A stretch of DNA of 64,000 nt from positions 2,206,227-2,270,226 of the forward strand of contig NZ_JAUSVL010000001.1 of the NCBI RefSeq assembly GCF_030814695.1. The letters are read 5' to 3'. Of the stretch, positions 1 through 15,140 are shown in pieces. Source of the stretch: Oligosphaera ethanolica (lineage in GTDB: Bacteria; Verrucomicrobiota; Lentisphaeria; Oligosphaerales; Oligosphaeraceae). Each line of letters begins with the position of its first letter. Position 1 is the stretch's first letter. The notes beneath the pieces are model-generated. The model searched no databases and was not told the DNA's origin. It saw nothing but the letters and a program-made list of their open reading frames with translations. The position numbers were made by a program, and so were the translations under genes.

Positions 1-383
1 GCCTGCTCGACGGCATTTCGGCCCAGGGGAATGAGTTGGCAAGAGATGTCGTAATGCAATACGGCGCTGAGTTCGCGGCTGAGTTCGCGGAGGGTCTGCG
101 GCTGGACGGCGCCGGCGTCGGTTTCCGTCAGGACTTTGTCGGCCAGCTCGGTATTGTCCATCGGCGTCATTTCGAGCAAGGCGTCCCACATGGAGGAGGC
201 CGTGCCCATGACCAGAATGCGTTCCGGCGCTTGTTGCAGCTTTTCGCAGTGCTTCAGCAGAGCCAGGAGGAAAAAGCTGCTGGTGAAAGTGAAGCCATCC
301 GCAAACTGGTAGCTGATTTCGCGGTAACGGCCGTTGTCACTTTTGCGTGCTTTGCCGAGAGTGGTGATCAGAATGGACGACAT
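1..383 (-). CDS. TM1812/Csx2-type CARF protein of a type III CRISPR system (3' part outside window)
   Basis: The reading frame starts at ATG 383 and stays open to the left edge, so only the first 127 residues are visible. The start (MSSILITTLGKARK...GRYREISYQF) and the segment VMGTASSMWDAL at about residues 56-67 match the N-terminal Rossmann-like CARF domain of the TM1812/Csx2 family, which binds cyclic oligoadenylate in type III systems. Any C-terminal effector domain, such as HEPN, lies outside the window and cannot be judged. The gene follows the CARF-Lon gene on the same strand after a 169-nt gap. That gap carries its own copy of the shared promoter-like element, so it may be transcribed independently. 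Confidence 0.72.
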   Translation of the reverse strand, partial: MSSILITTLGKARKSDNGRYREISYQFADGFTFTSSFFLLALLKHCEKLQQAPERILVMGTASSMWDALLEMTPMDNTELADKVLTETDAGAVQPQTLRELSRELSAVLHYDISCQLIPLGRNAVEQ

Positions 384-431: not shown

Positions 432-461
432 CTATATAGGGAACCCCACACGCGTTTTTCC
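432..461 (-). promoter_or_regulatory. Shared promoter-like element, copy 1 (TM1812-type gene)
   Basis: On the minus strand GGAAA is followed after exactly 15 nt by CCCTATATAG. The downstream end lies 48 nt before the ATG at 383. Copies with identical spacing precede the 388-aa gene, the MazF-like/sigma pair and cas10. The GGAAA box resembles the -35 box of ECF-type sigma promoters. Use as a promoter is inferred from recurrence and position. Confidence 0.6.
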
Positions 462-552: not shown

Positions 553-1911
553 TCACCGCCACACGGCGCTGCGGAGTTCGGCCAGAGAGGGCAGGGGGCC
601 GGTGAATTGCCGTGGAGCGCTACCATAGAGATACCCCCAGTTCACGCGTTGGGGTTGGGGGCAGTTGTTGCCGTGGACTTTGCCATTGCGGGGTAGATCG
701 ACGGGGCCCTGCGCGAAATCAATCACTTCCAGCTCATCGGGTTCAGCGTTGATATCGCGGTAGATCATTTTCATGCCCTGGGCTTTTGCTGCGAGCATGG
801 CCGCCTGCCCCATCAAGCGATTGCCGCCCGTGATATTGACCAGCGCAGTCGCTGGGTCGCGCTGGCCAAACTGGTTGCGCAGCAGGACTTCACTCAAGGC
901 CAAGTGATTGGAGGGTATTTCCTGGGTCGTGACGATAAGCGCGACGTGCTTTTGGTCAGCAAAGAACGCCTGCAGGAGATCGGCCTGCGGCTTGGTCTGT
1001 GGCGAATAGTACAAACACAGCTCGCGTGGTTGGATCAGCAGCGGCACACTCAGCGCGGGGGGGAGCGCGCCGCCCACGAGCTGGTGGAGCACGCTTACAG
1101 ATGTGGGAAACTCAAAGTGCTGCTCGAAGACACCGTGGTCGCGAACGTAAATCACGGCGTCGCGCAGACTGCTGGCGGCATAGACGGCGACGGCGGGGTT
1201 CCGGGCGGCGGCGGCAACGGCGAATTCCTGCCAGACGTCGTTGGGGACCAGCCAGTAGCGAGTGGTTCTAGCCGCAAGCTCGGCCTTGTTACCAATAGCA
1301 ACTGAAAGGACATCCCCTTTGCCATCACAGGCGCCGCTGACCGCCCAATAGCTGCCTAGGCGCACGCGCATCGCGCGGTCAGCAATGGCGATTTTGGCCA
1401 TCTCGGCGGCGAGCTGCCAGGAACGGCCCTCCAACGGCGCCGCCGACCAGGACGGCGGCTGGACGAGCAGGCTGCAGTCGGTGGCGACATTCTCGCTGAA
1501 GGCCAGCAGGCGACGGGAGTCCTGGCGCAGCCGGTGGGCAAGAACATAGATTCTCGCCAGTTCGGATGGCTGGCCATTGCAGCCGGCCAGAGGAAAGACG
1601 GCCATGGCGGCGTGGTGCGCGTGTTCGAGGAGCTCGCGCAGACTGTAGTCAAGATGGGGAAACGGCCTGACCGCCAGCAGCCAGGAGGGCAAACGGTCAT
1701 CCGTAACGGCGTCAAGCGCGATGGCCTGCCATAAAGCCAATTCAGCCAGGAGCGCCTGGGCGCGAATATCGAGCTCGCTGACGCGCGGCGATGAATAACA
1801 CGCACGGAAATCCCAGCTAGGAGACGGCTCGTGCTCGAAGCATTCCCAGAGCATGAGCTGGGCGTCGCCCATCAAGAGCTTCTGCAGCGATGGCAGGACT
1901 TGTGCGTTCAT
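553..1911 (-). CDS. CARF-domain protein with Lon-protease-like middle domain (putative cOA-activated protease)
   Basis: 452 aa in three parts. Residues 1-155 are mainly alpha-helical and not recognised. Residues about 158-258 align with the Lon (S16) proteolytic domain: EGRSW with S164 where Lon has its catalytic Ser, SGACDGKGDVL, then GNKAELAA with K209 and a following LVP. S164 and K209 are 45 residues apart, against 43 for the Ser-Lys pair of E. coli Lon. Residues about 295-400 carry VNITGGNRLMGQAA (358-371), the nucleotide-binding motif of Card1/Can1-type CARF domains. The ATG overlaps the stop of the 388-aa gene (ATGA), so the two are translationally coupled. By analogy with CalpL, cyclic oligoadenylate would switch on the protease. 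The Lon assignment rests on one motif-level alignment with a one-residue gap before the Lys. Confidence 0.6.
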   Translation of the reverse strand: MNAQVLPSLQKLLMGDAQLMLWECFEHEPSPSWDFRACYSSPRVSELDIRAQALLAELALWQAIALDAVTDDRLPSWLLAVRPFPHLDYSLRELLEHAHHAAMAVFPLAGCNGQPSELARIYVLAHRLRQDSRRLLAFSENVATDCSLLVQPPSWSAAPLEGRSWQLAAEMAKIAIADRAMRVRLGSYWAVSGACDGKGDVLSVAIGNKAELAARTTRYWLVPNDVWQEFAVAAAARNPAVAVYAASSLRDAVIYVRDHGVFEQHFEFPTSVSVLHQLVGGALPPALSVPLLIQPRELCLYYSPQTKPQADLLQAFFADQKHVALIVTTQEIPSNHLALSEVLLRNQFGQRDPATALVNITGGNRLMGQAAMLAAKAQGMKMIYRDINAEPDELEVIDFAQGPVDLPRNGKVHGNNCPQPQRVNWGYLYGSAPRQFTGPLPSLAELRSAVWR

Positions 1912-3074
1912 AGAACCGCAGTCTCACAGAGCAAAATGGTCAGATCGGCTGCACTAGCAAGCGGCGGGTGTTCGCAGGGTAGCCAGTCGCTGAGCACTAC
2001 GCTGCTATCTTCCTCGTCCACCCGCGCATAGCCACTGGCAAGCAGGGTGCGGCGCTTGCTGTGGATGAAGAGCGCGTCGTAACTCCCCATGGGCAGGTCG
2101 CAATCGGACAAATCCCACAGGAGCGTCCGATACTGATCCGGCTGCAGGGCCGCGAAAGGGCCGCCATAATAGCGGGCATAAACTGCGTCCACGGCGGGGC
2201 CGGTCGTCGCCAAATCGCCATGAGCCATGGCTGGCAATGCCTGGTTGGCTGGCAGCGGCACGCGCCAACAGGGGCTGCGTTGAACTGCCCCGGCGGCGGC
2301 GTACTGGAGCTCCTGCTCGGCAACGCGGAGACGGCGGCGGCGCGAAAAATCCACCGGCTGGATGGTGTTTTCCCGACCGGCCGGCGTGGTGGCTGACGAA
2401 CGCCACGCGGCGTGCTGAGCAAAATGGTCGCATTGTTCCATCCAGGCAAAATCGGCGCTATCCAGGGCTGCGAAACGATCAAGCGTTGCGGCCTTATAGT
2501 CGAGTCGCGGATCATCGGCGCTCTGAATGGGCAAGGCCATGTGCGACAAAATTTCCTCAGGCAGAACCTGGCCGGTTTGAACAAAGGCGAGGGCCTGCCG
2601 CGCCGTCGTCAACTCGCTGTCCGTGAGGGTATCGACGAGCCAGCTGCGGCGCAGGAACAGCGCGTGTATGCTGCGAGCATTCCATAACTGCAGCACGGCG
2701 AGGTAGTCCGTACGGCCGTCATTGAGCAACAGTTCTTCGTCCGTAGCCGGTAGAGGAAAGCGGGAAAAAGGTACAATTAGGTAGCTGGCAGAATCCCACT
2801 GCCGGAGCAACAGCACATGGCAAAGACTATCTGGTTGCGACAAGAGACGAATCTGTCCGGCAGCCAATTTATCCATGGCAAAATCCGCAACCAGGGCCTT
2901 GACGGCGGCGCCATGGCCTATGCTAGTGGCGTGTGGGAGCGTGGGCGGCGGCTCGTCCTCGTCGGCGCTGTCGTCGGAATGCCCTTGCACCGCTAGGTAC
3001 ACCAACAGCTGGTCGATAAAGCGTTTGGTCAAATCCCGCCGCAGGGCGTCGATTCCGCAGTGTTTAGTATTCAT
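1908..3074 (-). CDS. Conserved hypothetical 388-aa protein, possible anti-sigma or protease substrate
   Basis: No domain recognised with confidence. The middle (about residues 88-200) is rich in aromatic and proline residues, with the stretches SYLIVPFSRFPLPAT, LQLWNARS and RRSWLVDTLTD. An acidic linker (SDDSADEDEPPP) lies near residues 33-44. No signal peptide or membrane segment is evident, so it is probably cytoplasmic. It starts with AGGTG before ATG 3074, about 100 nt downstream of a copy of the shared promoter-like element, and its stop overlaps the start of the CARF-Lon gene. Its place between a sigma-like gene and a putative protease makes it a candidate inhibitor of the sigma factor or substrate of the protease. 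That role is inferred from context only. Confidence 0.5.
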   Translation of the reverse strand: MNTKHCGIDALRRDLTKRFIDQLLVYLAVQGHSDDSADEDEPPPTLPHATSIGHGAAVKALVADFAMDKLAAGQIRLLSQPDSLCHVLLLRQWDSASYLIVPFSRFPLPATDEELLLNDGRTDYLAVLQLWNARSIHALFLRRSWLVDTLTDSELTTARQALAFVQTGQVLPEEILSHMALPIQSADDPRLDYKAATLDRFAALDSADFAWMEQCDHFAQHAAWRSSATTPAGRENTIQPVDFSRRRRLRVAEQELQYAAAGAVQRSPCWRVPLPANQALPAMAHGDLATTGPAVDAVYARYYGGPFAALQPDQYRTLLWDLSDCDLPMGSYDALFIHSKRRTLLASGYARVDEEDSSVVLSDWLPCEHPPLASAADLTILLCETAVL

Positions 3075-3177
3075 GATGCACCTGACATTTCACCAGAGAA
3101 GTAACTGACTGCCGTCATGCTGGCCGCAAGACCATGGCATTGCGAAGACGGCGGCCGGTGGCGCATGACTCCCTGTC

Positions 3178-3207
3178 CTATATAGGGACCAAGCGGCGCA
3201 AATTTCC
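3178..3207 (-). promoter_or_regulatory. Shared promoter-like element, copy 2 (388-aa gene and CARF-Lon gene)
   Basis: Minus strand GGAAA, exactly 15 nt, CCCTATATAG. The -10-like decamer is identical to that of copy 1. It sits in the 149-nt gap between the sigma-like gene and the 388-aa gene, with its downstream end about 103 nt from the ATG at 3074. Confidence 0.6.
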
Positions 3208-3223
3208 GGCAGTTGCGGCAGGT

Positions 3224-4204
3224 TCACTGTGCTGCCGCCGGCAAAGCCGTAATCATCGCCAGAAAATCCCGTATGTTCTGGTTATGGGTTGATTGTTCCT
3301 GCAAAGCGTGAACAAGGACTGCGCGGAGAGCGAGAAAGAAGGACACGTTCATCGCTGGGCGACCGCTACTCTGGGCCAACCAGAACGACAACTTCTGCGG
3401 CAGCGCCGCCGCGAGCCGACAGCATGTTGTTTTTTGCCGGCCGACGGCCTTACACAGTTCGGCTGCTGACGCCTTGATGCCATGCAACATCGCCAGGAGG
3501 ATGATAATTTCTTCTTGGCTGAGTATCGCGATCAACTCATGAGCGTGGTACGCGTACTCGACATCGTTGTCAGCGGCGGCTTGATCGGGAGGCAAGGCCA
3601 GTTCATCGACAATCATGTCGCCGAGTGTGCGCGCGTCGTTGTCGGCGACCTGCTGGTCGATGCTCTGGGCATAAAAAAAGCGTCGGACCGTTTTTTGGCT
3701 TTCCTGGTGGATGACTCTCGCGCGGAAGGCCGGAAAATAGGACTCGATCAGCTCATTGCCGACTTCGTTGATCATGCCGCGCGGCCCGAGTAACATGCCG
3801 TTGATGACTTTCATGGGCGGATCTGCGCTGGCGCTAATCTTTGCCCAGACGAAGTCTTTGTGTTCTTTATACTGCCGGCGGCTAGGGCCGTGGCTCGGTT
3901 CCGGCGCGTCGGCCGGATTGCTGTGCTGGTCAGCGCATGCCGGTTGGTCTTTGCTGGCTCGAAACAAATCGAAGGCCTGAATGATGTCATGATCGCTAAC
4001 CGGCCCGTACTGCCCGTTGCTGTTGAGACAGTCACGACGCTCGAGAGCACCATTGTTGACGAGCAGCCGCAACATCTTGCTGACAATGCGCCGCTGGAGA
4101 TAGGACCGCACCGCCGGCGGACAACCATCCACGAAACAGATTTTTTTCCAGGTATTCCAGGCTGCCAGTTCCTCTTCTGGTGACAACAACGACGGGGTAG
4201 TCAT
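3224..4204 (-). CDS. Sigma-factor-like protein (CalpS-like candidate)
   Basis: 326 aa. The C-terminal half has the layout of sigma-70 family proteins. An acidic linker (SIDQQVADNDARTLGDMIVDE, about residues 178-197) of the type that precedes region 4 is followed by a helix-turn-helix-like segment (SQEEIIILLAMLHGIKASAAELCKAVGRQKTT, about 223-254) resembling region 4.2. The N-terminal 60 residues are helical and basic (YLQRRIVSKMLRLLV). The central segment SADPPMKVINGMLLGPRGMI is unfamiliar. The ATG overlaps the stop of the upstream MazF-like gene (ATGA). If it is a sigma factor, the GGAAA-N15-CCCTATATAG sites in this locus are obvious candidate targets. Sequence divergence is high, so this is a probable rather than certain assignment. 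Confidence 0.5.
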   Translation of the reverse strand: MTTPSLLSPEEELAAWNTWKKICFVDGCPPAVRSYLQRRIVSKMLRLLVNNGALERRDCLNSNGQYGPVSDHDIIQAFDLFRASKDQPACADQHSNPADAPEPSHGPSRRQYKEHKDFVWAKISASADPPMKVINGMLLGPRGMINEVGNELIESYFPAFRARVIHQESQKTVRRFFYAQSIDQQVADNDARTLGDMIVDELALPPDQAAADNDVEYAYHAHELIAILSQEEIIILLAMLHGIKASAAELCKAVGRQKTTCCRLAAALPQKLSFWLAQSSGRPAMNVSFFLALRAVLVHALQEQSTHNQNIRDFLAMITALPAAAQ

Positions 4205-4686
4205 CGGCTAAGACCTCCTTCGACCAAAAAACGCGTGAGTTCCTGCGTTTCCTCCGAAGTCAGCTTTGGCTTATGGAGATTGCGTTCAACTTCGGCGCGC
4301 CACTGGCGCGTGTTGCAGAAATTCAGCGGCCGTACAGGCACGGGCCGCAGGATGCTGAAGTAGGTCCGGCGCTCCGGTTCCCTCTTGGCCATGATGTCAC
4401 ATGCCGAAAAACATCGCGAGCGAGCTTTGCTGGTGCCAATCAGCATACTAACGACGTCCTGCAGGCTGCTGGGTGTCCGTCGATTGACGCTGAGCCCAGG
4501 ATGGGCGCGGCGAGTGCTGCGTTGATCATAGCCCGCAACCGTGCGCTTGAGCAGACTTTCCTTGAGAAACCACAGCGTTCCCAGGTGACAGTCGATGCCA
4601 AAGTTGAACAAAACCAGCCAACGTTTTTCTTCGCTTGCTTCCACCGCCTGCTCCCAATTCCACCTGTATGGTCTTCCGCCACCCAC
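4201..4686 (-). CDS. Small protein with weak MazF/PemK-like features (CalpT-like candidate)
   Basis: 161 aa from a GTG at 4686, translationally coupled (ATGA overlap) to the sigma-like gene. The segment HPGLSVNRRTPSSLQ followed by VVSMLIGTSKA (about residues 62-87) resembles the beta-strand core of MazF/PemK RNases, where a 'RPxLVV ... VxVxPLTS' pattern is usual. The C-terminal 30 residues are charged and helical. In the known CRISPR-Lon system the MazF homologue CalpT holds the sigma factor CalpS until it is cleaved. A MazF-like gene fused by overlap to a sigma-like gene fits that plan, but the protein is shorter than I would expect for CalpT. An ATG at 4691 lies in another frame and looks spurious. 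Confidence 0.4.
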   Translation of the reverse strand: MGGGRPYRWNWEQAVEASEEKRWLVLFNFGIDCHLGTLWFLKESLLKRTVAGYDQRSTRRAHPGLSVNRRTPSSLQDVVSMLIGTSKARSRCFSACDIMAKREPERRTYFSILRPVPVRPLNFCNTRQWRAEVERNLHKPKLTSEETQELTRFLVEGGLSR

Positions 4687-4780
4687 GCCATGGTCAGATG
4701 CCCGCTATTGCCGCGCGCCCTAGGACTGTCACTACGGAGTGAACAATAACCAGCACGCCGGCATTGTCAATGCGGCAAGC

Positions 4781-4810
4781 ATACGCAGGGCAAACCAGGA
4801 GGAGATTTCC
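4781..4810 (-). promoter_or_regulatory. Shared promoter-like element, degenerate copy 3 (MazF-like/sigma-like pair)
   Basis: Minus strand GGAAA, exactly 15 nt, CCCTGCGTAT. The first box and spacing match the other copies, but the second box keeps only CCCT and the TA pair. It lies about 95 nt upstream of the GTG at 4686. If real, the sigma-like gene would regulate its own expression. Confidence 0.4.
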
Positions 4811-4920
4811 TTTCTTGCGCAAGAGAAGAGGGAGGAGAGGTTCATGGCCCGCCCCGCAACCAGACGCAATTCCCCCCGCCACAAGCAAAGCGCTTTCTGG
4901 GGTAGCGCCGACGGCTGCGG

Positions 4921-5382
4921 CTAGTTTGGGTCCACAATACAAGCCGTGCCGCCCAGAACAGGCGGGGGCGTTTGCCAGCTCAGGTACAAGACCTGCCAGG
5001 ACATAATCGCGCTCTCCGGAACTTCCTGCCCAGGCGCCGGCCGGAAATTGGCCACATAGTTGGGTGATAACAGCCAGCATTCCTGAAAAGACCGCCCCCA
5101 AAAACAGGGCAGCGCCGAGGCGTCGAGGCTGATGACCGGCCGACGCTGGGGAGGAGTCAAATCGCAGCCCAGATAACGCGATGCGGCCAGCAAGGTGTTG
5201 TCATGGCCCCAAAACGAAAACAGGACGCAATTTTGCAGGGCGCTGAGCAAAGCCGCCCGTTCCCGAGGCACGATAAGCACCGGCCGACGGATTAGACTCA
5301 TGGGAAAGCTGTTGCCAATTAGTAGACCGGGGGACTCGGGTTTAACCGGCAATGGTGATATCGACGATGATGACGCTTGCAC
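4921..5382 (-). CDS. crn2: AcrIII-1/Crn2-type ring nuclease (DUF1874 family)
   Basis: 153 aa from a GTG at 5382. The body follows the DUF1874 pattern: an N-terminal strand with the conserved Asn (LLIGNSF, N24), then WGHDNTLLAA with H60 at the position of the catalytic His, LGCDLTP, RRPVISLD with R81, and ANFRPAPGQEV with R114 ahead of the C-terminal helix. Members such as SIRV1 gp29 degrade cyclic tetra-adenylate, and bacterial Crn2 versions sit in type III loci to turn the signal off. The family's usual acidic residue three positions after the last Arg is Pro here, and there is an insertion near residues 93-107. It lies between cmr1 and the sigma-like cassette, the expected place for a signal terminator. 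The alignment was made by eye. Confidence 0.65.
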   Translation of the reverse strand: MQASSSSISPLPVKPESPGLLIGNSFPMSLIRRPVLIVPRERAALLSALQNCVLFSFWGHDNTLLAASRYLGCDLTPPQRRPVISLDASALPCFWGRSFQECWLLSPNYVANFRPAPGQEVPESAIMSWQVLYLSWQTPPPVLGGTACIVDPN

Positions 5383-5486
5383 AATAATGGCCTCCGCCGG
5401 TTAACGCCCGGCGTGACGGATGGACGGGGACGGCAATGGACGAAGCTGGAAACAAAGAAGGCAATACAGGGAAGGCAATACAGGGA

Positions 5487-6100
5487 GTTCTATTGCCTCT
5501 TTGGCCCCAGTCAGCTTCGCCGACTGGGACCAATGAGGCCGATGAACACGATCATCAATGGCGCGTTACCCAGGGCGGCGCGCGCCTGCAGCGCTGCTTG
5601 CCCTGGGCTGCTATGTTTCGCGCTTTCAGCGCTGCTGCCGCTTCGCGGCAAGGGAGTGCCACGGCAATTGTGTGGTCTTCAGCGGAGAGGGGGCGGCCCG
5701 AGCGTCTTTCTTGTTATCGCGGACAGGCCGGTCGGATCGTCTTTCTTGTTATCGCGGACGGATCGGACGGATCGGACGGATCAGACGGATCAGATGATTG
5801 ATCGGTCCGATCGGTCCGATCCGTCCGATCGGTCTGATGGCAAGGCGCAACATTACGTTCTATTGCCTCTTTGGCCCCAGTCAGCGTCGCCGACTGGGAC
5901 CAATGAGGCCGATGAACACGATCATCAATGGCGCGTTACCCAGGGCGGCGCACGCCTGCAGCGTGCTTGCCCTGGGCTGCTATGTTTCGCGCTTTCAGCG
6001 CTTCTGCCGCTCCGCGGCAAGTAAATGCCACGGCAATTGTGTGGTCTTCAGCGGAGAGGGGGCGGCCCGAGCGTCTTTCTTGTTATCGCGGACGGATCGG
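5487..6100 (+). repeat. Tandem duplication of the dispersed multi-hairpin element
   Basis: The roughly 900-nt gap between cmr1 and crn2 has no credible gene. A segment starting at 5487 recurs at 5857 (offset 370). Each copy contains three hairpins: CCAGTC/GACTGG arms, CCCAGGGC/GCCCTGGG arms, and a short CCGC/GCGG stem. Both copies run into the same tail ending in stacked 9-mers. Related copies occur at 18.8, 34.2 and 42.8 kb. Confidence 0.85.
5754..5840. repeat. Stacked 9-mer repeats forming a long inverted repeat
   Basis: Several units of GGATCGGAC are followed by GATGATTGATC and then the complement GGTCCGATC/CGTCCGATC, so one strand could fold into a long imperfect hairpin. A second, shorter block with the same units lies at 6090-6172. 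No coding signal is seen. Confidence 0.75.
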
Positions 6101-6289
6101 ACGGATCGGACCGATCGGACCGATCGTCGATTTGATCAGTCGGATCAGTCGGATCGTCTTTCTGGTTATCGCGGACGGGTCGTGCCACGTCGCCACCGGC
6201 CCGCGCCACCGGCCCGCGCCACCGGCCCGCGCCGACACGCACCGCCCCGTCGTTTAGCCCACGGTTTTTGGCCCTCAATCGCCAGCAAC

Positions 6290-7381
6290 TTAATCCGGTG
6301 ACAGTTCTTTAACAAGAGATAGCTTCGGGTCCTGTTTCATGCGTTGGTACATTTCCAAACTGACTTTGTGGTGTTCCTCCTTTGTGAATTTTGAACGAAG
6401 AACAACCTCGGCTTGTGGCGGCCAAGCATACTTGTCCACAAAGAACACAAGAGCCTTTTTGAGACCGGTATGAGGGGAACGATATGGCCTAAGAATGACG
6501 GGAGAAGCAAAGCGCTCCATGCCCTCTTCTGCGGGCTCCCAATTCACGGTGGGATTCGCATTTCGATACCGTTGGATAATTGGCAAGCCGAGAGCAGGAC
6601 GGTAAGTCGTTTGTCCTTGTTTCTCGAAGTGAAACCCGACATCGTGGTCATTCTTGGCGTACGAAAAGCCAGGTGCCCCTTCGTTGGGTTCCATGTTATG
6701 ATTGAGGTAGGCCCGCCAGTTGCGTAACCAGGCTGCCAACACCGAAACCGGATCTTCGCGATCCGCCATGGCAATCTCGCGAATACAAAAGCTGTCCGGC
6801 TCTGCAAAATGGCGGATGACCTCTGCAAACGGAGGAATGCGTTGGTCATTGTCGGGAGCGAAGGCCAAAGCGCCCATTGCGCGCCGTGAGCGCATACCCA
6901 ATGAACCCAAATAGCCAAAGAGAAATCCGAGAGCTTCAATATCGGCAACCCACTCAGCATCACCACGCCAATTCAGATACAACTCAAAGCTTGGCAGACA
7001 ATCATCGAAGACGGCGCGTTTGGCCTCTTGAAGCGCGTTTGGATTCTTTTTCTGTTCAGCAGGCCTAAGAGGGAAGAGCAAGTAGTCATAGGATTGTTGC
7101 ATGTCACAAAGATTTTTGGGCGTACTCTGCGCACTACGCATGATGCGTACCCGCACATGCAATTGACTGGCCTGGCATTTGTCTTTCCGTGCTGCACCAA
7201 AGATTGTGTCTTCTTGTTCGCGCAGCCCCATCCCTTTTTGGCGCAGACTGGCAAAGCCTCCGAGCAGGCGAAACCACCAACGCAGCTGGCCGCGTATGGC
7301 CGGCACGCGAATCTCGGCCCGTGTTTTGGGCTGTGCTCCACCACAGAATCCGGGTGAAATCAACTCCAAGTTCATTTTCAT
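6290..7381 (-). CDS. cmr1: Type III-B CRISPR RAMP protein Cmr1
   Basis: 363 aa. The N-terminal glycine-rich start (ELISPGFCGGAQPKTRAEIR) and the family signature IRGQLRWWFRLLGG (about residues 29-42) identify Cmr1 (Cas7 superfamily). A second RAMP fold includes LGSLGMRSRRAMGAL near 160-173. Cmr1 caps the 3' end of the crRNA-target duplex in the Cmr effector complex. The ATG overlaps the cmr6 stop (ATGA), and this is the last gene of the cas10-cmr operon. The repeat-filled 0.9-kb gap that follows suggests transcription could end here. Confidence 0.93.
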   Translation of the reverse strand: MKMNLELISPGFCGGAQPKTRAEIRVPAIRGQLRWWFRLLGGFASLRQKGMGLREQEDTIFGAARKDKCQASQLHVRVRIMRSAQSTPKNLCDMQQSYDYLLFPLRPAEQKKNPNALQEAKRAVFDDCLPSFELYLNWRGDAEWVADIEALGFLFGYLGSLGMRSRRAMGALAFAPDNDQRIPPFAEVIRHFAEPDSFCIREIAMADREDPVSVLAAWLRNWRAYLNHNMEPNEGAPGFSYAKNDHDVGFHFEKQGQTTYRPALGLPIIQRYRNANPTVNWEPAEEGMERFASPVILRPYRSPHTGLKKALVFFVDKYAWPPQAEVVLRSKFTKEEHHKVSLEMYQRMKQDPKLSLVKELSPD

Positions 7382-8718
7382 GTCAAATCCACTCCTGTTT
7401 TACGTGCGGCGTTGCGCAAAGCTTCCACGCGACGGAAGGCCTTGCCATTTTTTTTGTCGTCCGGGCCCTTGGCTTTGAGTGCATCCCGACAATCGCTCGC
7501 CCATTCCTTAGCGAAATGCAGTTTGAAAGCCAAGCAAATCATCCGCTGTTCATCCACTGACAGCGAATCGATTTTCGCAATCATCCCTTTCAAGGCGCCA
7601 AGTTCATCGCCTTTTGGCAGGCTTTTCATGAATTTGGCAAGCTCTTGTTCTTCTGGTGTCATCGACTCAAAGGCCTCCTGTGCTCGCCGTTCTTCCTCGG
7701 CCTTATCACGTTCTTTTTGCAGGGTTTGGGTCTTTGTTTCATTGATTTCCAGCCAGCCGTAGCCAGCGCTCGTTTTAGCGCCAATGCCATACTCGGACAA
7801 GCCCCCGCGTAAGCATTCCCCCCCGAATGCTAGCGGCGAAAACGACACATCTTTCTCAAGCGCCCGCAAAGGCAGCAAGACAAAGAGGAAATCAAGATCG
7901 GCGCAGACTGCTGGGAAAAAGTTGGGTATCGGTGACTCTATATCCAAGGCGATACGATTTTGCCTCTCGTCTTGATAATACTTACTGTGATGGCAATTCA
8001 CGATGTCGGGATCCAGTAGTGAAAGAGAGAGTTTGTTCGGATTCGTCAGAATATCATCAGAGATATGAACACATGCGGGTAGGAAAGCAATGGTGCCGGC
8101 AAAGTTTGTCAGTGCTTTCCATGGTTCATGACGATGCTTGTCAGTGATAATCGTTCCTGTGATATCAGCCAATTTCCGAGCACACTTTTCCCATACAATT
8201 TGCCGATGCTCAGCGCACGCGTAAACGAAAGCACTGAGAGGCTTTTTGTCATTGACTGCCGACGGTTTCGGCTCCGACCAATCTTGTTCCGACCAGCCGA
8301 AGGTCAACGCCGTTTTCAGCAATAATTGGCATTTCGTGGCGTGATCCGTTGCCCCGCGAACTGCCTCTAACGCATATTTCCGGGCAATACCCTTTTGTGC
8401 GCTACCGGGAATCATTGGTGTCCCATGGAAACGATGCAAACACAAGCCGGTATTTTCCAGGATGCCACCAGAATGATTGATCAGCAGTCGGGACTGGGTT
8501 GTCATAACAAACTGCTCGGCACCGGAGATACGATGGAATGGGAACGTAGAAAACGACAGGTTTTTCTTCGTGTTAGCACAACGACAGATTTGCTCTATTT
8601 CCAAGTTCTTGTCTTTTTGACGCTGAACCACGAATTTCTCCAGTCGCAGGGATGGCGACTGGCAGCGTTCGAAGGTGTTTCCGAGGAGATCGACAATATC
8701 CTTAGTTGCGGTTTGCAT
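7378..8718 (-). CDS. cmr6: Type III-B CRISPR RAMP protein Cmr6 with C-terminal extension
   Basis: 446 aa. The start at ATG 8718 is preceded by AGGAG with 6-nt spacing; an ATG 6 nt upstream would touch the ribosome binding site. Cmr6 features are the RAMP segment GTPMIPGSAQKGIARKYAL (about residues 100-118) and the glycine-rich loop GLSEYGIGAKTSAGYGWLEI. After this loop, where most Cmr6 proteins end, about 120 further residues follow. They begin with a charged coiled-coil-like stretch (KERDKAEEERRAQEAF) and continue as a helical domain. It overlaps cmr5 by 17 nt and couples to cmr1. Cmr6 sits next to Cmr1 in the complex; the extension's role is unknown. Confidence 0.9.
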   Translation of the reverse strand: MQTATKDIVDLLGNTFERCQSPSLRLEKFVVQRQKDKNLEIEQICRCANTKKNLSFSTFPFHRISGAEQFVMTTQSRLLINHSGGILENTGLCLHRFHGTPMIPGSAQKGIARKYALEAVRGATDHATKCQLLLKTALTFGWSEQDWSEPKPSAVNDKKPLSAFVYACAEHRQIVWEKCARKLADITGTIITDKHRHEPWKALTNFAGTIAFLPACVHISDDILTNPNKLSLSLLDPDIVNCHHSKYYQDERQNRIALDIESPIPNFFPAVCADLDFLFVLLPLRALEKDVSFSPLAFGGECLRGGLSEYGIGAKTSAGYGWLEINETKTQTLQKERDKAEEERRAQEAFESMTPEEQELAKFMKSLPKGDELGALKGMIAKIDSLSVDEQRMICLAFKLHFAKEWASDCRDALKAKGPDDKKNGKAFRRVEALRNAARKTGVDLT

Positions 8719-9094
8719 CGTCATCTCCTTTTTTTGCGAAGCGGCGGAGGATACTGAGATACGCCATAGCTTCGGCGGTGACAACGCGGAGGGTATCGGA
8801 TTGTTTGCTGCAAAGCCAGGACGCGAAGGCGTCGAGGTCGTCTGTACCGGCGTAGAGAGCGATGTCGCGATCGGCGAGGTGCTTGATGATGGCGCGGAAG
8901 GTCTTGGCGTAGCCGGAATCGGCATTCTTGCCGTCGTGTTCGTCTTCGATGGCGAATGCCAAGGCGCCGATGAAACCGTTCTGCTGGATCATGGCGGGGA
9001 TTTTTTTGACGACCTCGCCATCGTTTTTGCCCTTGATGGACTCTTTGGCGGCCAGGAGCGCATTTTTGGCGCGGATTTGTTCGAGATTTTTCAT
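8702..9094 (-). CDS. cmr5: Type III-B CRISPR small subunit Cmr5 (Cas11)
   Basis: 130 aa from ATG 9094. The all-helical sequence with NGFIGALAFAIE (about residues 38-49) and LRVVTAEAMAYLSILRRFAKK near the C-terminus fits Cmr5, the small subunit that lines the crRNA-target groove. The reading frame is open further upstream but only in sequence that belongs to cmr4. It lies 13 nt after cmr4 and overlaps cmr6. Confidence 0.9.
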   Translation of the reverse strand: MKNLEQIRAKNALLAAKESIKGKNDGEVVKKIPAMIQQNGFIGALAFAIEDEHDGKNADSGYAKTFRAIIKHLADRDIALYAGTDDLDAFASWLCSKQSDTLRVVTAEAMAYLSILRRFAKKGDDDANRN

Positions 9095-9107
9095 GCTTGG
9101 CCTCCGC

Positions 9108-10031
9108 TTAGTTATTGTTATTGATGACATTGACGCTGCACCAGCCGAGGCCGGTGGTGGCGTCGGCGCCGATCTGCAGCACATTGTCGTTTGCGTGCAG
9201 CTTCTCAGCGAGTTTATTGATCATCCCATCGGCCAGTTCGTTCAAGACGACATAGAACATGCATTCGGAAGGCACATTCTCCTGGTTGAAGAGCGCGCCG
9301 CCCTCAGCCGTGCCGGTATCGGGATTGATCTTGACATGCTGGGCGATTTCGCAGGCATTGGTGACGAAGTAGGAGAAGAATTCGTCGGAGACGACCACGA
9401 GGTGGGCGGCCAGTTCTTCCTGCCAGGACTCGTCGTCGCTGAGTTTTTTCAGCGCTGTCACCAGGTCAGCGGGAACATCGCCAGCGCGCTTCAGGCAGTA
9501 TTCTTCGAGGATGACTTTGCCGTCGAAGCCCATGCATTCGGGTGCCAGGCAGGCCTCGGCGTCGTTCAAGGTGGGCAGAGTGAAGGCCAGGCCGGCGTCG
9601 CGTTTGAGGCGAGACAGGGCCAGGGGGCAGGTCAGCCAGGCAAAACCGCCCTTGGCCGAACGCACGGGAAAGGCGAGGATTTTGCCCTCGCCAATGAGGA
9701 GCTTGCCGGACTGGGCGTTCTTGGGATCGCGGTCGGCGCCAAAGAGCTTCGCGAGGTCAGAATCCTTTTTGCGAACACGGCGCGGTTTCGGGGCATTTTT
9801 GCCGGTGCTTACGGCTTCGTCCACCGGCTTTTCGGATTTGTCGTCCGGCACGATTTCTTCTGTCTCCTCTCGCCACAGGTCAGCGAGGACGCCCTTGAGG
9901 CTGGAGCCCGGGATGACCGGGTAGCCGGTATGGCGTTCACGGATAATGGGCAGGTCCACCGCGCCGACGGATGAGCCGGCGCCAATGTGCATGGGGGTGC
10001 GAGTGAAGATTGCGAGCAGCTGTTGTTTCAT
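9108..10031 (-). CDS. cmr4: Type III-B CRISPR backbone RAMP Cmr4 (Cas7), target RNase
   Basis: 307 aa from ATG 10031, with AAGGAGT 7 nt upstream. The longer open frame before this belongs to cmr3. The N-terminus shows the Cmr4 signature HIGAGSSVGAVDLPIIRE followed by YPVIPGSSLKG. D26 falls at the catalytic Asp used for target RNA cleavage at 6-nt intervals, so the backbone is predicted to be active. A Lys/Pro-rich segment near residues 75-95 (KPVDEAVSTGKNAPKPRRVRKK) may be a flexible thumb loop. Cmr4 forms the crRNA-bound filament. Confidence 0.95.
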   Translation of the reverse strand: MKQQLLAIFTRTPMHIGAGSSVGAVDLPIIRERHTGYPVIPGSSLKGVLADLWREETEEIVPDDKSEKPVDEAVSTGKNAPKPRRVRKKDSDLAKLFGADRDPKNAQSGKLLIGEGKILAFPVRSAKGGFAWLTCPLALSRLKRDAGLAFTLPTLNDAEACLAPECMGFDGKVILEEYCLKRAGDVPADLVTALKKLSDDESWQEELAAHLVVVSDEFFSYFVTNACEIAQHVKINPDTGTAEGGALFNQENVPSECMFYVVLNELADGMINKLAEKLHANDNVLQIGADATTGLGWCSVNVINNNN

Positions 10032-10047
10032 GATCATACTCCTTGAA

Positions 10048-11370
10048 TTAGTCCTGATTGCTGGGAATGAGACTGCAAACACCGATACCAAAACCTTTTT
10101 CGCCGTAGAGCGACGACCGCCGGTTGATGCGTCCGGGCGTAGCCTGGGCATCCAGCACCTGCCAGAGGGCAGACAACGCGGCGTGATCGTCACAGGCAAA
10201 GACATAGACCGATCCGGCGGGCACGGCCGCGCGGGTGGGTTTTGCGCCCTGGCCGAGAGCGTCGTCGCCCTCGGCGGCATTTTTTGCATGCAGGTCCCAG
10301 CCGGAAAAGAGCTGGGGCTTGCCGATGCGCGCGGCCACGAGGGTCGCGGCGATGGGTTTTTGCTGCTGCTGTTGCCGGGTGCGCCAGGCGCTGCGGTCTT
10401 CGCCGGGGCGGCGCGCAAGTGCCTCGCCAGGCGCGAGCAGCTGGACGGCGCCGTCTGCCGGGTTGATCCAGGTCGGCAGCCAGCCGCCGGGATGCCCGCC
10501 GGGGTAGCTATCGCTGGCGGCCAGGGACGGGAATACCGCCGGGCTCAGGAGCGTCCAGCGCAGAAGCGTCTTGGCGGAGCTGGTCGCCGGTGCCGCGCTC
10601 TGCGGCAGCTGCCACGTGGCGTGGTCGATGGACATGACGCCCTGTTGGCCGCCGAGAATCAGGTTCGCCGGCAGGCCCAACTGCGCGAAGACATCAACGA
10701 GTTTATCGCCCTGCCCCTTGGGTTTGATCATGCAGGATGCCAAGCAAGCCAGACTGATGTCGTCATGCAGACGCAGATACTCGGCCTGATAGAGCTTGCC
10801 GTCCTCGACGCTGCCACGCTCGGCATCAACGCCAATGCCGATGCGGCGTTCGGCGGCGTAGAGGTCGGGGACCGCCTTGAGCTCAATAGTCTTTCCCTCC
10901 AGGTAGGAGAAGTAGTCGTCAGCAGAAAGCCATTGCGGCAGCTGTTGTTTGCCCAGCACCGGTGTGCTGAACGACCGCGACAGCGGCTGCGGTAAATTGG
11001 TGCCGGCGCAGTCGCTCAAGGTCATGGGCACGATTGTGCCATCTTCGGACATGGCCAGGTCCAGCGGGCAGGGCAGATAGAGCGTGCCGTCCCGGTCATC
11101 GAGCGGAAAGGGCCCGATGCTCTGCAGGGCGCCGAAGCGATCCGAGCTGTGCCGCGTACTGCCGCGTTCGCGATCCGTTTTCCGGTGCTCTGCGCCCTCC
11201 CATTGCTGGCGTTCCGGCCAGTTGCGATGGAAGCAGTTGATCAATGCATTCCACAGCTGGTCGGGCCGTGGCCAATTGGCCCCCAGGCCGGCATCAGATG
11301 CCTCCATGGGCCGCGCATCACGCAGAAAAAGTAGATCGCGGGGTTTGAGTTTCAGGGTGTAATTACTCAT
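10048..11370 (-). CDS. cmr3: Type III-B CRISPR RAMP protein Cmr3 (Cas5)
   Basis: 440 aa. The N-terminus LKPRDLLFLRDARPMEA is the characteristic Cmr3 start, and the final LYGEKGFGIGVCSLIP is the glycine-rich RAMP loop. Cmr3 binds the 5' handle of the crRNA and bridges Cas10 and Cmr4. The ATG overlaps the cas10 stop by 4 nt. A run of Gln (RTRQQQQQKP) sits near residue 340 in a probable surface loop. Confidence 0.95.
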   Translation of the reverse strand: MSNYTLKLKPRDLLFLRDARPMEASDAGLGANWPRPDQLWNALINCFHRNWPERQQWEGAEHRKTDRERGSTRHSSDRFGALQSIGPFPLDDRDGTLYLPCPLDLAMSEDGTIVPMTLSDCAGTNLPQPLSRSFSTPVLGKQQLPQWLSADDYFSYLEGKTIELKAVPDLYAAERRIGIGVDAERGSVEDGKLYQAEYLRLHDDISLACLASCMIKPKGQGDKLVDVFAQLGLPANLILGGQQGVMSIDHATWQLPQSAAPATSSAKTLLRWTLLSPAVFPSLAASDSYPGGHPGGWLPTWINPADGAVQLLAPGEALARRPGEDRSAWRTRQQQQQKPIAATLVAARIGKPQLFSGWDLHAKNAAEGDDALGQGAKPTRAAVPAGSVYVFACDDHAALSALWQVLDAQATPGRINRRSSLYGEKGFGIGVCSLIPSNQD

Positions 11371-14108
11371 TCGTCACCTCTTGTGCCACGATTGATGAAG
11401 GTCTCAGTCATAAACGGCTGGATGAAATCGCCCAAATGCTTAAGAGAAGCGCCGGCCGATGCAGCGGTGGCCGGCTTCTGGTCGGCAGCCTGCACGGGCT
11501 TTGTCTCGGCGCATTCGTCAAGCCAGTCGTTCATGTCTTGGCGGAGGGCCATTTTGTCCTCTGGCCTGAGGTCGGCGCCCTGCCGTGACAGCACGTGATC
11601 GACTTCTTTCATGACGATTTCGCAAAGCGTGTCGCGATCAATGGTCAGGTTCTTGTCCTTATCCAGCCGGTAGGGCGCCAGCAACGCCGCAAGGGCGTAG
11701 GGGAAGCGCTCAGAGAGCTGGCCGGCGGCGCTGCCGTTGCCATTCTTGTCGTCTCTGGCGCTGAGCTGTTCGAGACGGGTCATCAGTGGCAGTGCGGCAC
11801 TCGTCCATTTGCAGCCCCACTGAATGATTTCGCCTGAGCGCTTATAGAGTGAGAAGGCCACGGCCGCCCGGCCATAGTGATGTTTTGCCCGGTGCTCAGC
11901 CGCCTGGGCTTCTCGCACCAGCATTTGCAGGGGGGCCTGGAAATGGCCGATGGCGATGCCAATTGATACCTCCGCGCGTTCACCGGGCATCTGCAAGGGA
12001 TAGCCCGCCGCACCGTGTACCATGCCTTCTGGCTCGACATTCAGGGGGTAGTTGCTCGGTTCTTCGGGGCATTTACCGCGGAAGAGTTCACGCAGGGCCT
12101 TGGCGCAGGCCAGCGCGCGGTCGGCCGGCAGCATGGCCAGGACGTCATCGCCGCCGGCGTAGATCAGCTGGCCATCGTGGGCCTCGACGACTGGGCGGGC
12201 AATCCAGGTGGCGAAATTGGCCAGCGCCTCGCTGAATTGCAAATGGTAGGACGGCGTGAGCAGGCGCCGCAACTCGGCGCAGTGGTGGGCCTGCAGCAGG
12301 GGCTCCAGGTAGCGCCGGGCGGGCTCTGACAGCTGGTCTAGGAATGCCGGCGTATTCATGCCCGACACCCACTTGCCCATTTCGTCGCCATCCATGGCCA
12401 GCACGGCGACATACTTGCCGTGGCGTTGATTACCCTTGGCAATATCTTCGACGGAATCGAATTTGAGGACGTCCTGGAAATCGCCAGAATCCAGTCCCAA
12501 AGCATCACGGAGGTACGGCACGATATTGTCGCGGCACCACAGGCGTTTGATGAGATTCATGGCACCGTAGCTATGCCCCGCCGTGGTGAAGAGATTGCCA
12601 TTGTCCTTACCGTAGTGTTCGCGCAGGTAATCCCAGAATTTCTCGTCGCCGATGACTTCTTCCTTGCCCGAGAGGGAGTCCTTGATGCTGCTGGTTGGGC
12701 ATGGGTCATTCCAGGCAGCGAAATCGCGGGTGTTGCGCCGGGCGGCGAGTTTGGCATCGACCAAAGCGTAGTGCGCTGACCAGAGAATGCCGGGGTTGTT
12801 GAGGCGGTCTTTGAGTTCTTTATCCGTGTAGTAGCGCTCGTCGCGGTCGGCCTGCGGCAGCCATTGTTCGGCGAGAGCGAGGACCGTGTTGAGCAGGTCG
12901 AGCGGCGTGTGGTCGGCGCCATGGGTCTCTTTCGCCGGCTTCTGTCGCTGATTCACCGGCAGTTTGGCAAAGTGCTTGAGGCATTCTTCCCGTTCCAGCC
13001 ATGGCTGTACGGCCCAGGTGATTTGCGGGAAGGCCTCAATTTGCGCATGCCAGCGTTTGCGCCATTGCTCAAGGCCTGTGCAACCGGCGGCTTGTGCCTC
13101 CCGGTCGATCCACGCCCAGACAGCGTCGCCAATCCGCTTCAGCTCGTCGCGCAGGGCTTTTTCGGCGGCTTGGGCGAGGTCTTCGGCGCGGTCGGCGGGT
13201 ACCAGAGCGAGGAAGCGATTGGGCAACGTGGGTGTCGTCAGCCAGCGGGCAGCCGGCGAGGCGGCAGCGGTCATACCAGACCGGACGGCGTCATTTTTTT
13301 CGTGGAGGATGCGTTCCCAGAGACTCTGTTTCTTGTCGCCGCTGTTGAAGGTGACCGCGTACATGGACTCGCGGTGGAGCGCATCGAAGATGCCATTGCC
13401 ACGCAGGTTCGGAAAGATCATGGCGTCTGGCCCGACGGCGTCACTGACGGCTTTCATGGCGTGGCCCATGAGCCATGATAGCAGGTACGATCCGCTCCAG
13501 AGGTCGCGGGTGCTGCGGGCCTGAGCGATGAAGTCCTGGACCGGGCCGAGCTGGAAGAGAAGCATGGCCGGGCGCAGCACGCTATCGACGGCACAGCCGG
13601 CCAGCGCGGAAGTGGCGCTGTTATGTATCCAGATGCTGTGGTCAGGTATGCGGGTGTCAGCCGGCAACAAGGCCAGATCAAAATCCTGTCCGGCGGTCGC
13701 GGCGTTTTCCAGCCAACGCCGCCAGTACAGAAAGAAGGCCTTATGTGGGTCGTCCGTATCAATACCGCCGATAGCACCCTGAAGGATGTCATGGACCAGG
13801 CCGGCCTGGTTGAGTAGCTTGCCGACGGGCAATTCGTAGGGCGTCGACGATAGCGGATGAATGACCTTGCCGCTTTCCGAGGCGCGGAAAATCGTTGCGC
13901 ACTTGCCTTTGGCGAAGGCGAAGCGGTCGGCGGCGGCGGCGAAATGATCTGCGGCCTTGACGACATGCTGTTCGAACATGTCCGGCTCGACCAGGCCGGC
14001 GCCGACTTGAAAACGCCTGGCGCTTTCTTCGTGGTCGTGGATCGCCAGGCACTTGTCTGGCGGATCATGAAGAAGGGCCGCCAATTTTGTCTGCCAGGAT
14101 GATGTCAT
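11367..14108 (-). CDS. cas10: Type III-B CRISPR signature protein Cas10 (Cmr2)
   Basis: 913 aa, preceded by GGAG 7 nt before ATG 14108. An N-terminal LLHDPPDK (H14-D15) is the Cmr2-type HD-like start. SARSTRDLWSGSYLLSWLMGHAM near 196-218 is typical of the first palm. YAGGDDVLAML places the GGDD motif at residues 652-655, so cyclic oligoadenylate synthesis is expected once target RNA is bound. The C-terminal 150 residues form the helical domain 4. It is the first gene of the cmr operon. A copy of the shared promoter-like element lies about 350 nt upstream. Confidence 0.96.
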   Translation of the reverse strand: MTSSWQTKLAALLHDPPDKCLAIHDHEESARRFQVGAGLVEPDMFEQHVVKAADHFAAAADRFAFAKGKCATIFRASESGKVIHPLSSTPYELPVGKLLNQAGLVHDILQGAIGGIDTDDPHKAFFLYWRRWLENAATAGQDFDLALLPADTRIPDHSIWIHNSATSALAGCAVDSVLRPAMLLFQLGPVQDFIAQARSTRDLWSGSYLLSWLMGHAMKAVSDAVGPDAMIFPNLRGNGIFDALHRESMYAVTFNSGDKKQSLWERILHEKNDAVRSGMTAAASPAARWLTTPTLPNRFLALVPADRAEDLAQAAEKALRDELKRIGDAVWAWIDREAQAAGCTGLEQWRKRWHAQIEAFPQITWAVQPWLEREECLKHFAKLPVNQRQKPAKETHGADHTPLDLLNTVLALAEQWLPQADRDERYYTDKELKDRLNNPGILWSAHYALVDAKLAARRNTRDFAAWNDPCPTSSIKDSLSGKEEVIGDEKFWDYLREHYGKDNGNLFTTAGHSYGAMNLIKRLWCRDNIVPYLRDALGLDSGDFQDVLKFDSVEDIAKGNQRHGKYVAVLAMDGDEMGKWVSGMNTPAFLDQLSEPARRYLEPLLQAHHCAELRRLLTPSYHLQFSEALANFATWIARPVVEAHDGQLIYAGGDDVLAMLPADRALACAKALRELFRGKCPEEPSNYPLNVEPEGMVHGAAGYPLQMPGERAEVSIGIAIGHFQAPLQMLVREAQAAEHRAKHHYGRAAVAFSLYKRSGEIIQWGCKWTSAALPLMTRLEQLSARDDKNGNGSAAGQLSERFPYALAALLAPYRLDKDKNLTIDRDTLCEIVMKEVDHVLSRQGADLRPEDKMALRQDMNDWLDECAETKPVQAADQKPATAASAGASLKHLGDFIQPFMTETFINRGTRGDE

Positions 14109-14490: not shown

Positions 14491-15140
14491 AGGCCCGGGA
14501 TATTTTTTCCCAAAATTTATGGACGCTCTGGACGCAATGGACGCAATGGACGCGGAAGTTTTGTCCGCAGATGGCGCCGATTGACGCAGATTGTTTGAGG
14601 GAATTCGCCAAAAAATGGATTCAACCGCCGGATATGGAAAAGCGCATGTACGGTGGCGTGGAAGGGCACGGGGCGAAATCCACGTTGCCCCATCCGATCG
14701 GCCGGGAAACGGGCGCGCGAGTGGACAGGCCGGGAAACGTCTGCGTGGGGCCGTTCGAGTGTCGTGCGAGGAGCTGACCTCTCGTGACGGTGCGGGAGGG
14801 ACGCCCGCACCACGGCCGAAATACACGCAGGCGAGACGCCGGGCACCACGGCCTTCCCTTGGCGATTGGGCTAGGCGGCCGCTTGCGGGCCTTTCCGTCC
14901 TATGCCGCGCCGCTTGCGGCGCGGATTCCCCGCGCCGCCCGTTCTGTGCCGCGCCGCCGTTCTGTGCCGCGCCGCTTGCGGCGCGGATTCCAGCGCGGAT
15001 TCCCGCGCGGCGCCGGCGGTACGCGCCTGTTGTTTTTTGGGCGGCGCGGGCTAGATTCACTGAGGCTTTGTCGCTATGGACAAAAACACACGCCAATAGG
15101 CGCGATTCCATGCTCATTATATCGTCGGGGAGTTGACACT
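14491..15140. other. Intergenic region with simple repeats, no gene seen
   Basis: The gap between divergent cas10 and the SIS-glycosidase gene holds short stacked repeats (GGACGCAAT units near 14521-14556) and GC-rich palindromic units (GCGCCGCTTGCGGCGC type) near 14910-15000. Open frames across it have no family resemblance or start signals. A ribosome binding site (GGGGAG) at about 15126 belongs to the next gene. Confidence 0.6.

What the first reader, a model, noticed from the sequence alone, without database searches (positions are those of the whole stretch)
553..5382. CalpL/CalpT/CalpS-like signalling cassette built from different parts
In the known CRISPR-Lon system, a cOA-activated SAVED-Lon protease (CalpL) cleaves a MazF homologue (CalpT) and frees an ECF sigma factor (CalpS). 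Here a Cmr locus carries a CARF protein with a Lon-like Ser/Lys domain, a MazF-like small protein coupled by ATGA to a sigma-like protein, and a 388-aa protein coupled by ATGA to the CARF-Lon gene. The sensor is a Card1-type CARF domain rather than SAVED, the sigma-like protein is longer, and a fifth protein is added. If confirmed, this is a separate branch of CRISPR-to-transcription signalling with visible target promoters.
Basis: partly seen in the sequence, partly recalled or inferred. Interest (0 to 1): 0.93.

Follow-up and report, generated by a model that had tools for sequence, protein, structure and literature searches.

The report
CARF-Lon protease with sigma-factor switch
Beside a complete type III CRISPR locus, this bacterium encodes one protein that joins a CRISPR-signal-sensor domain to a Lon-type protease domain, next to a sigma-factor-like protein and a protein of predicted MazF fold that likely holds the sigma factor back, an order that recurs in related genomes, so that virus detection would likely be turned into a change of gene expression; a similar relay is known, but with a different sensor.

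Summary
The 452-aa protein has a C-terminal Card1/Can2-type CARF domain (profile E 1.6e-8) and an N-terminal Lon domain (E 1.6e-4) whose Ser164/Lys209 align with the catalytic pair of M. jannaschii Lon. The 326-aa protein is sigma-like. The predicted MazF fold is in the 388-aa protein, not the 161-aa one; like CalpT it has an extra C-terminal domain. The 153-aa protein weakly resembles AcrIII-1-type ring nucleases. The order p161-sigma-p388-CARF-Lon is complete in 8 loci and cut by contig ends in 3; 9 of 11 carry cas genes. Sigma/p388 pairs also occur in 16 fetched loci without CARF-Lon; the p388 C-terminal domain was detected in 8 of 10 linked proteins (5 are seeds) and 0 of 16 unlinked ones. 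A promoter-like GGAAA-N18-TATATA follows sigma in 4 of 6 genomes of the family and precedes csx1 here, but shows no genome-wide excess. I read this as a CARF-based branch of Calp-like CRISPR-to-transcription signalling. CARF-Lon fusions were predicted before; my searches found no printed link to a sigma cassette. Ligand, cleavage and anti-sigma activity are untested.

The parts
553..1911 (-). CARF-Lon protein, 452 aa
   Evidence: open frame; profile A6 vs PDB: Card1 E 1.6e-8, M. jannaschii Lon 1xhk E 1.6e-4
1144..1494 (-). Lon-like protease domain, about residues 140-256; Ser164 codon 1422-1420, Lys209 codon 1287-1285
   Evidence: alignment to 1xhk; Ser164 in 20 of 20 and Lys209 in 19 of 20 rows (counted)
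742..1086 (-). CARF domain, about residues 276-390
   Evidence: Card1/Can2 chains; PADLOC CARF models; Pfam CARF_Card1 in 17 of 20 members at E up to 1, best 6e-6
1908..3074 (-). p388, protein of predicted MazF fold with an extra C-terminal domain; likely the CalpT-like anti-sigma factor and protease substrate
2559..2876 (-). MazF-like domain of p388, residues 67-172
1911..2300 (-). C-terminal domain of p388, residues 259-388, seen only in the CARF-Lon/type III-linked form
   Evidence: domain HMM: 3 of 5 non-seed linked proteins at E<1e-3, 0 of 16 unlinked at E<1
3224..4204 (-). sigma-like protein, 326 aa
   Evidence: profile A5 vs SigA E 0.0018, FliA 0.019; the 50 VIA rows shown are sigma factors or chains of transcription complexes, one row unnamed
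3344..3592 (-). sigma region 4-like part, about residues 205-287
4201..4686 (-). p161, conserved partner overlapping sigma by ATGA; function unknown
   Evidence: 12 rows aligned, window included; no known family
4921..5382 (-). p153, possible AcrIII-1/Crn2-like cA4 ring nuclease
   Evidence: the only three PDB matches of its profile are 2x4i, 2j85 and 6scf, E 0.05-0.98; that these form the AcrIII-1 family is recalled
3179..3207 (-). promoter-like element GGAAA-N18-TATATA upstream of p388
433..461 (-). the same element upstream of the csx1-type CARF-HEPN gene
1..383 (-). start of csx1-type CARF-HEPN gene (409 aa, runs out of the window; then cas1, cas2, CRISPR array)
6290..7381 (-). cmr1
7378..8925 (-). 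cmr6 (true start probably further in)
8702..9184 (-). cmr5
9108..10418 (-). cmr4 (homology begins near residue 130 of this open frame)
10048..11370 (-). cmr3
11367..14108 (-). cas10 (Cmr2) with HD-like LLHDPPDK and GGDD motifs

Best explanation
The genes between a type III-B CRISPR operon and its csx1-cas1-cas2 genes encode a Lon-CARF protein, a protein of predicted MazF fold, a sigma-like protein and two small proteins, and likely work as a Calp-like relay in which a Cas10-made cyclic oligoadenylate (probably cA4) would bind the CARF domain, the Lon domain would cut the MazF-fold protein, which is predicted to be an anti-sigma factor, and the sigma factor would be freed. Shown here: the CARF and Lon domains by profile, the catalytic residues in the right places, the recurring gene order, and the link between the extra C-terminal domain of p388 and CARF-Lon or type III genes. 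Predicted: the folds of p388 and sigma. Inferred: ligand, cleavage, its site (most likely the low-confidence linker around residues 214-263 of p388, which would free an N-terminal MazF-like fragment, as CalpT23 is freed) and anti-sigma activity. The freed sigma factor would then likely act on GGAAA-N18-TATATA promoters that drive p388-CARF-Lon and csx1 (cas10 in one relative), which would be a positive loop. p153 would be the off-switch that destroys the messenger. p161 probably assists sigma.
For: CARF and Lon domains with the aligned Ser/Lys pair; weak direct match of the same profile to CalpL (7qda, E 0.034). Sigma by profile and model. MazF fold in p388, the fold reported for the CalpT fragment that stays on CalpS (PMC9704534 and PMC11417357, passages). 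Cassette complete in 8 loci and cut by contig ends in 3 more; cas genes on the same contig in 9 of 11 (for G067 on the CARF-Lon contig). The p388 C-terminal domain HMM finds 3 of 5 non-seed linked proteins and 0 of 16 unlinked ones. Cas10 keeps GGDD. Element GGAAA-N18-TATATA: among spacings 12-24 in the whole own genome the only two copies with N18 lie in this locus; in G000, G261, G249 and G358 together 6 of 12 N18 copies lie in the cassette loci. p153's profile meets only chains that I recall as AcrIII-1-type, and a csx1 gene is next door.
Confidence: 0.68

Rival explanations
1. p388 is a MazF-type ribonuclease toxin kept inactive by its C-terminal domain or by sigma; the Lon domain would free it to shut the cell down, and the sigma factor only regulates the operon.
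For: Predicted MazF fold of residues 67-172; a freed nuclease was the early proposal for the CalpL system (PMC9704534, passages).
Against: p388-like genes stand beside the sigma gene in 16 of the 17 fetched loci without CARF-Lon (L090 has sigma alone; these loci were found through sigma), so the partner has a use without this protease; in the later account CalpT is an anti-sigma factor (PMC11417357, passages). MazF active-site residues were not tested.
Confidence: 0.14
2. One reading: p161 is the inhibitor or substrate and p388 a scaffold for the protease.
For: p161 overlaps the sigma gene by ATGA and is present in all 11 linked cassettes.
Against: No MazF-like signal in p161 (fold not predicted); p161 was not found in 15 of the 16 fetched loci with an unlinked sigma/p388 pair, where a partner for sigma would still be needed.
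Confidence: 0.1
3. CARF-Lon is a broad protease that harms the host on activation, as the 2022 review speculates, and the sigma/p388/p161 genes are only neighbours.
For: Review section on CARF-Lon effectors (PMC9704534, passages); sigma/p388 pairs exist alone.
Against: Gene order kept in 8 complete loci, ATGA overlap of p388 with CARF-Lon in the window, and a p388 domain seen only in the linked form.
Confidence: 0.06

Closest known systems
CalpL/CalpT/CalpS (SAVED-Lon, MazF-like anti-sigma factor, ECF sigma factor; type III CRISPR)
   Same: N-terminal Lon domain fused to a C-terminal cOA-type sensor; MazF-fold protein with an extra C-terminal part; sigma factor; type III locus.
   Different: Sensor is one Card1/Can2-type CARF domain, not SAVED; p161 and a possible ring nuclease are added; the p388 and sigma profiles returned no Calp chain from the PDB (whether CalpS is among the solved chains was not checked); only the Lon part matches CalpL, weakly.
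CARF-Lon fusions listed as predicted effectors (Makarova 2020, not held; named in PMC9704534)
   Same: CARF domain with a Lon protease domain in type III loci.
   Different: The passages I read speculate on host proteins as targets and name no sigma or MazF-fold partner.
Craspase (Csx29/Csx30/CASP-sigma) and SAVED-CHAT protease cascade (recalled; seen only in a listing, and in passing in passages)
   Same: Type III protease signalling, with a sigma factor in the first.
   Different: Caspase-like proteases, other substrates, no Lon domain.
Card1/Can2 CARF nucleases
   Same: CARF domain (E 1.6e-8 and 3.4e-6).
   Different: Nuclease instead of protease (recalled); CARF near the N-terminus.
AcrIII-1/Crn2 ring nucleases
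   Same: p153 aligns with 2x4i around a G-H shared by both.
   Different: Weak score (E 0.05); activity untested; the family name of the three chains is recalled.

Membership tests
Calp system (CalpL) | SAVED sensor domain | tested here: not met
   C-terminal part matches single CARF domains of Card1/Can2; the weak matches to CalpL and other SAVED chains lie at profile positions 80-227 only
Calp system (CalpL) | Lon protease domain with Ser/Lys pair | tested here: met
   1xhk E 1.6e-4, 7qda E 0.034; Ser164 20 of 20, Lys209 19 of 20
Calp system (CalpT) | MazF-fold protein next to the protease gene | tested here: met
   predicted fold, (low-confidence model); ATGA overlap
Calp system (CalpT) | binds and inhibits the sigma factor, cut by the activated protease | not testable with these tools
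   needs biochemistry
Calp system (CalpS) | sigma factor | tested here: met
Calp system (CalpS) | belongs to the ECF group | tested here: inconclusive
   best PDB sequence matches are SigA and FliA; ECF chains appear lower in the VIA list; no sigma family over a curated cut-off
Calp system | encoded in a type III CRISPR locus | tested here: met
Lon/S16 peptidases | Ser/Lys catalytic pair in the Lon fold | tested here: met
   by alignment only; no structure predicted
CARF superfamily (Card1/Can2 type) | CARF Rossmann domain with T-G-G motif | tested here: met
   by sequence profile
MazF/PemK for p161 | profile or fold similarity | tested here: inconclusive
   no sequence support; its structure was not predicted
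MazF/PemK for p388 | profile similarity in sequence | tested here: not met
   no PemK match in 21 members scanned against Pfam, hhalign probability 0.2%; so fold-like, not a family member by sequence
AcrIII-1/Crn2 ring nucleases for p153 | profile similarity | tested here: inconclusive
   three hits only, 2x4i, 2j85, 6scf, E 0.051, 0.19, 0.98

The most novel reading that the evidence does not exclude
A sigma factor with a MazF-fold anti-sigma partner is a phylum-wide plug-in switch: the C-terminal part of the anti-sigma protein is exchanged (none, a CARF-Lon docking domain, a VWA/YfbK domain) so that different sensors can open it. In type III CRISPR loci of Lentisphaeria the sensor is a CARF-Lon protease, and the freed sigma factor drives its own protease, csx1 and in places cas10 through GGAAA-N18-TATATA promoters, so that one foreign RNA would trigger a self-amplifying, cA4-gated immune programme reset by the neighbouring ring nuclease.
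Probability: 0.35. Interest if true: 0.86.

Novelty: new variant of a known kind. Interest (0 to 1): 0.77.

Why it matters
It would show that linking a CRISPR messenger to a sigma factor through a Lon protease is not a single oddity of SAVED proteins: the same logic stands on a different sensor and a different sigma/anti-sigma stock. It gives the predicted CARF-Lon effectors a specific candidate substrate and makes an open question, what genes a CRISPR-controlled sigma factor turns on, testable with a named promoter element.

Tried and rejected
GTPase regulon: two unlinked GGAAA-N18-TATATA sites stand just before homologous GTPase-DUF697 frames in G261 and G358. Rejected: both lie inside a conserved coding stretch, and the homologues in G188, G281 and G349 (by eye) lack the site. 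The GTPase family occurs in 18 of 387 genomes at E 1e-20, of which 5 have the cassette.

Genome-wide regulon: 32 sites against 29 for the reversed pattern in 12 genomes, so no claim. Two of the seven related-locus N18 sites (L035, L047) overlap the 3' end of the upstream open frame, so they count for less.

p161 as MazF, and p388 as MazF by sequence: profile comparisons gave nothing; only the model shows the MazF fold, in p388. No Calp protein is named in the lists for the p388 and sigma models, which excludes nothing.

Divergent CARF-Lon loci (G317, G174, G202): the two genes before CARF-Lon gave E 0.06-1.1 against sigma and p388 profiles in a six-protein search without filters; not counted as cassettes.

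Weak CARF-Lon hits: one search lists 21 of 387 genomes; I use 10 with E under 1e-30, and G202 only as a divergent case; the other 10 match a part of the profile and were dropped. Of the 14 proteins, P0001 (the window's own), P0012 and P0013 (partial) were left out of the 20-row alignment. Of the 26 genomes with sigma hits, the stretches of G247 and G050 were not fetched.

Literature: Rouillon 2023, Makarova 2020 and Shah 2019 are not held and are recalled or cited through others. Searches for CARF-Lon with a sigma link; only PMC9704534 holds the term CARF-Lon.
Full report
WHAT IS THERE. The window lies in a 5.73-Mb, one-contig genome (G000:C1:2206227-2270226). Named relatives that hold the cassette are Lentisphaerae, Oligosphaeraceae and Lentisphaeria MAGs, so the organism is likely of that group. 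On the minus strand run cas10, cmr3, cmr4, cmr5, cmr6, cmr1, a repeat-rich gap, then p153, p161, sigma, p388 and CARF-Lon. Beyond the window follow a csx1-type CARF-HEPN gene, cas1, cas2 and a CRISPR array with at least 49 copies of a repeat (the 30 listed are spaced 72-80 bases apart). Cas10 keeps an HD-like motif and GGDD, so it can likely make cyclic oligoadenylate. p161/sigma and p388/CARF-Lon overlap by ATGA.

CARF-LON. Single-sequence searches gave only CARF matches, all weak. Eleven homologues, eight loci and the window gave a 20-row alignment. Its profile meets Card1 (E 1.6e-8) and Can2 (3.4e-6) with the C-terminal part and, separately, M. jannaschii Lon 1xhk (E 1.6e-4) with residues 140-256; CalpL (7qda) follows at 0.034. 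In the 1xhk alignment Ser164 falls on the Ser of G-D-S and Lys209 on the Lys of N-E-K; that these are the catalytic pair, and the species of 1xhk, is recalled. Ser164 is in 20 of 20 rows, Lys209 in 19 of 20 (counted).

RECURRENCE. In 387 genomes of the phylum the CARF-Lon profile has strong hits (E under 1e-30) in 10 (21 at E 0.001). ORF comparison finds p161-sigma-p388-CARF-Lon complete in 8 loci: the window, G261 (L031/L036), G249 (L037), G281 (L038), L035, G252 (L041), G321 (L042), G015 (L045); and cut by contig ends in G188 (L072), G358 (L074) and G067 (L040+L073). Nine of the 11 have cas genes on the contig: Cmr in G000, G188, G358 and, on the CARF-Lon contig, G067; Cas10 (III-D models among the best) in G261, G252 and G015; Cas1 in G281 and G321. 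The two without are contigs of 4.5 and 5.3 kb. So the cassette is seen with both III-B and III-D-like loci. A second, partial CARF-Lon in G249 (L039) sits beside frames that look like csx1, cas1 and cas2 by eye.

THE PAIR ALONE. Of 17 further fetched loci found through sigma, 16 have a p388-like gene beside it and none has CARF-Lon or a match to the window's cas genes in the stretch fetched (L075-L089, L091; L090 has sigma alone). One of the 16 (L078, G195) also has p161, beside a TPR protein and a Schlafen/AAA protein. One pair has an SSB gene next to it (L076), two more look so by eye (L079, L084). In L082 the p388-like protein continues into a VWA/YfbK protein. An HMM of the p388 C-terminal domain from five linked proteins finds three more, all CARF-Lon-linked (L035 5e-6, G067 1e-4, L041 7e-4), does not find L045 (0.34) or L042 (1.9), and finds 0 of 16 unlinked ones at E below 1 (best 1.4). 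This is my main evidence that the domain serves the protease.

PROMOTER ELEMENT. Reading the gaps I saw GGAAA-N18-TATATA between sigma and p388 in G000, G261 and G249 and before csx1 in G000. In the own genome, spacings 12-24 gave 10 matches (7 for the reversed pattern); the only two with N18 are these. In 31 related loci (424 kb), spacings 10-26 gave 11 matches, 7 with N18; the reversed pattern gave 5, 1 with N18. The seven: G261, G249, G358 (p388 is off the contig) and L035 after sigma, G202 before the gene in p388 position, and two copies in G067; the L035 and G202 sites overlap the end of the upstream frame. G358 has another 145 bases before cas10. Over G000, G261, G249 and G358 that is 6 of 12 N18 copies in the cassette loci. 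Against it: G281 and G188 have none, and 12 genomes together show 32 sites against 29 reversed. So the element is local and the regulon unknown. GGAAA resembles -35 elements of ECF sigma factors (recalled).

MESSENGER. p153's profile (8 rows) meets three solved chains, 2x4i, 2j85 (STIV B116) and 6scf (E 0.051, 0.19, 0.98), which I recall as AcrIII-1-type, cA4-specific ring nucleases. Csx1 is grouped with cA4 effectors, and mixing of messengers in one locus is called very rare (PMC11229360, passages). Hence cA4 is my guess.

VERDICT. It works like the Calp relay on present evidence but is not a CalpL: the SAVED feature was tested and not met. New variant of a known kind. CARF-Lon fusions had been predicted (PMC9704534, passages); the sigma cassette around them I found nowhere.

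Noticed in passing
window 5469-6182: Two long direct repeats (125 and 145 nt, 92-94% alike, about 370 bases apart) with GATCGGACG-type satellites between cmr1 and p153.
   Followed up: no
L075-L089, L091: Sigma-like gene plus MazF-fold partner as a pair without CARF-Lon in 16 fetched loci, beside ssb in L076 and by eye in L079 and L084: a possible phylum-wide stress or DNA-repair switch.
   Followed up: partly
L082:482-2779 (also L087, L088, L089 by eye): The MazF-like partner continues into a VWA/YfbK protein.
   Followed up: partly
L078 (G195): p161-sigma-p388 followed by a TPR protein and a Schlafen AlbA_2/AAA_16/DUF7779 protein: the module may serve another defence sensor.
   Followed up: partly
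G261:C555, G358:C330, G188:C9, G281:C337, G067:C79 and C101: GTPase-DUF697 genes, mostly in tandem, in 18 of 387 genomes; in G252 two other GTPases stand directly before p161.
   Followed up: partly
L042:6382-7593 (G321): AAA-like protein with IetA match beside cas1 and the CARF-Lon cassette.
   Followed up: no
G000, L001-L008: Eight RVT_1 matches of near-equal score in open frames of 412 or 432 aa, spread over the own genome: probably a multi-copy mobile element.
   Followed up: no
window 14784-18782: Very long open frame (1332 aa) directly beyond cas10 on the other strand; not examined.
   Followed up: no
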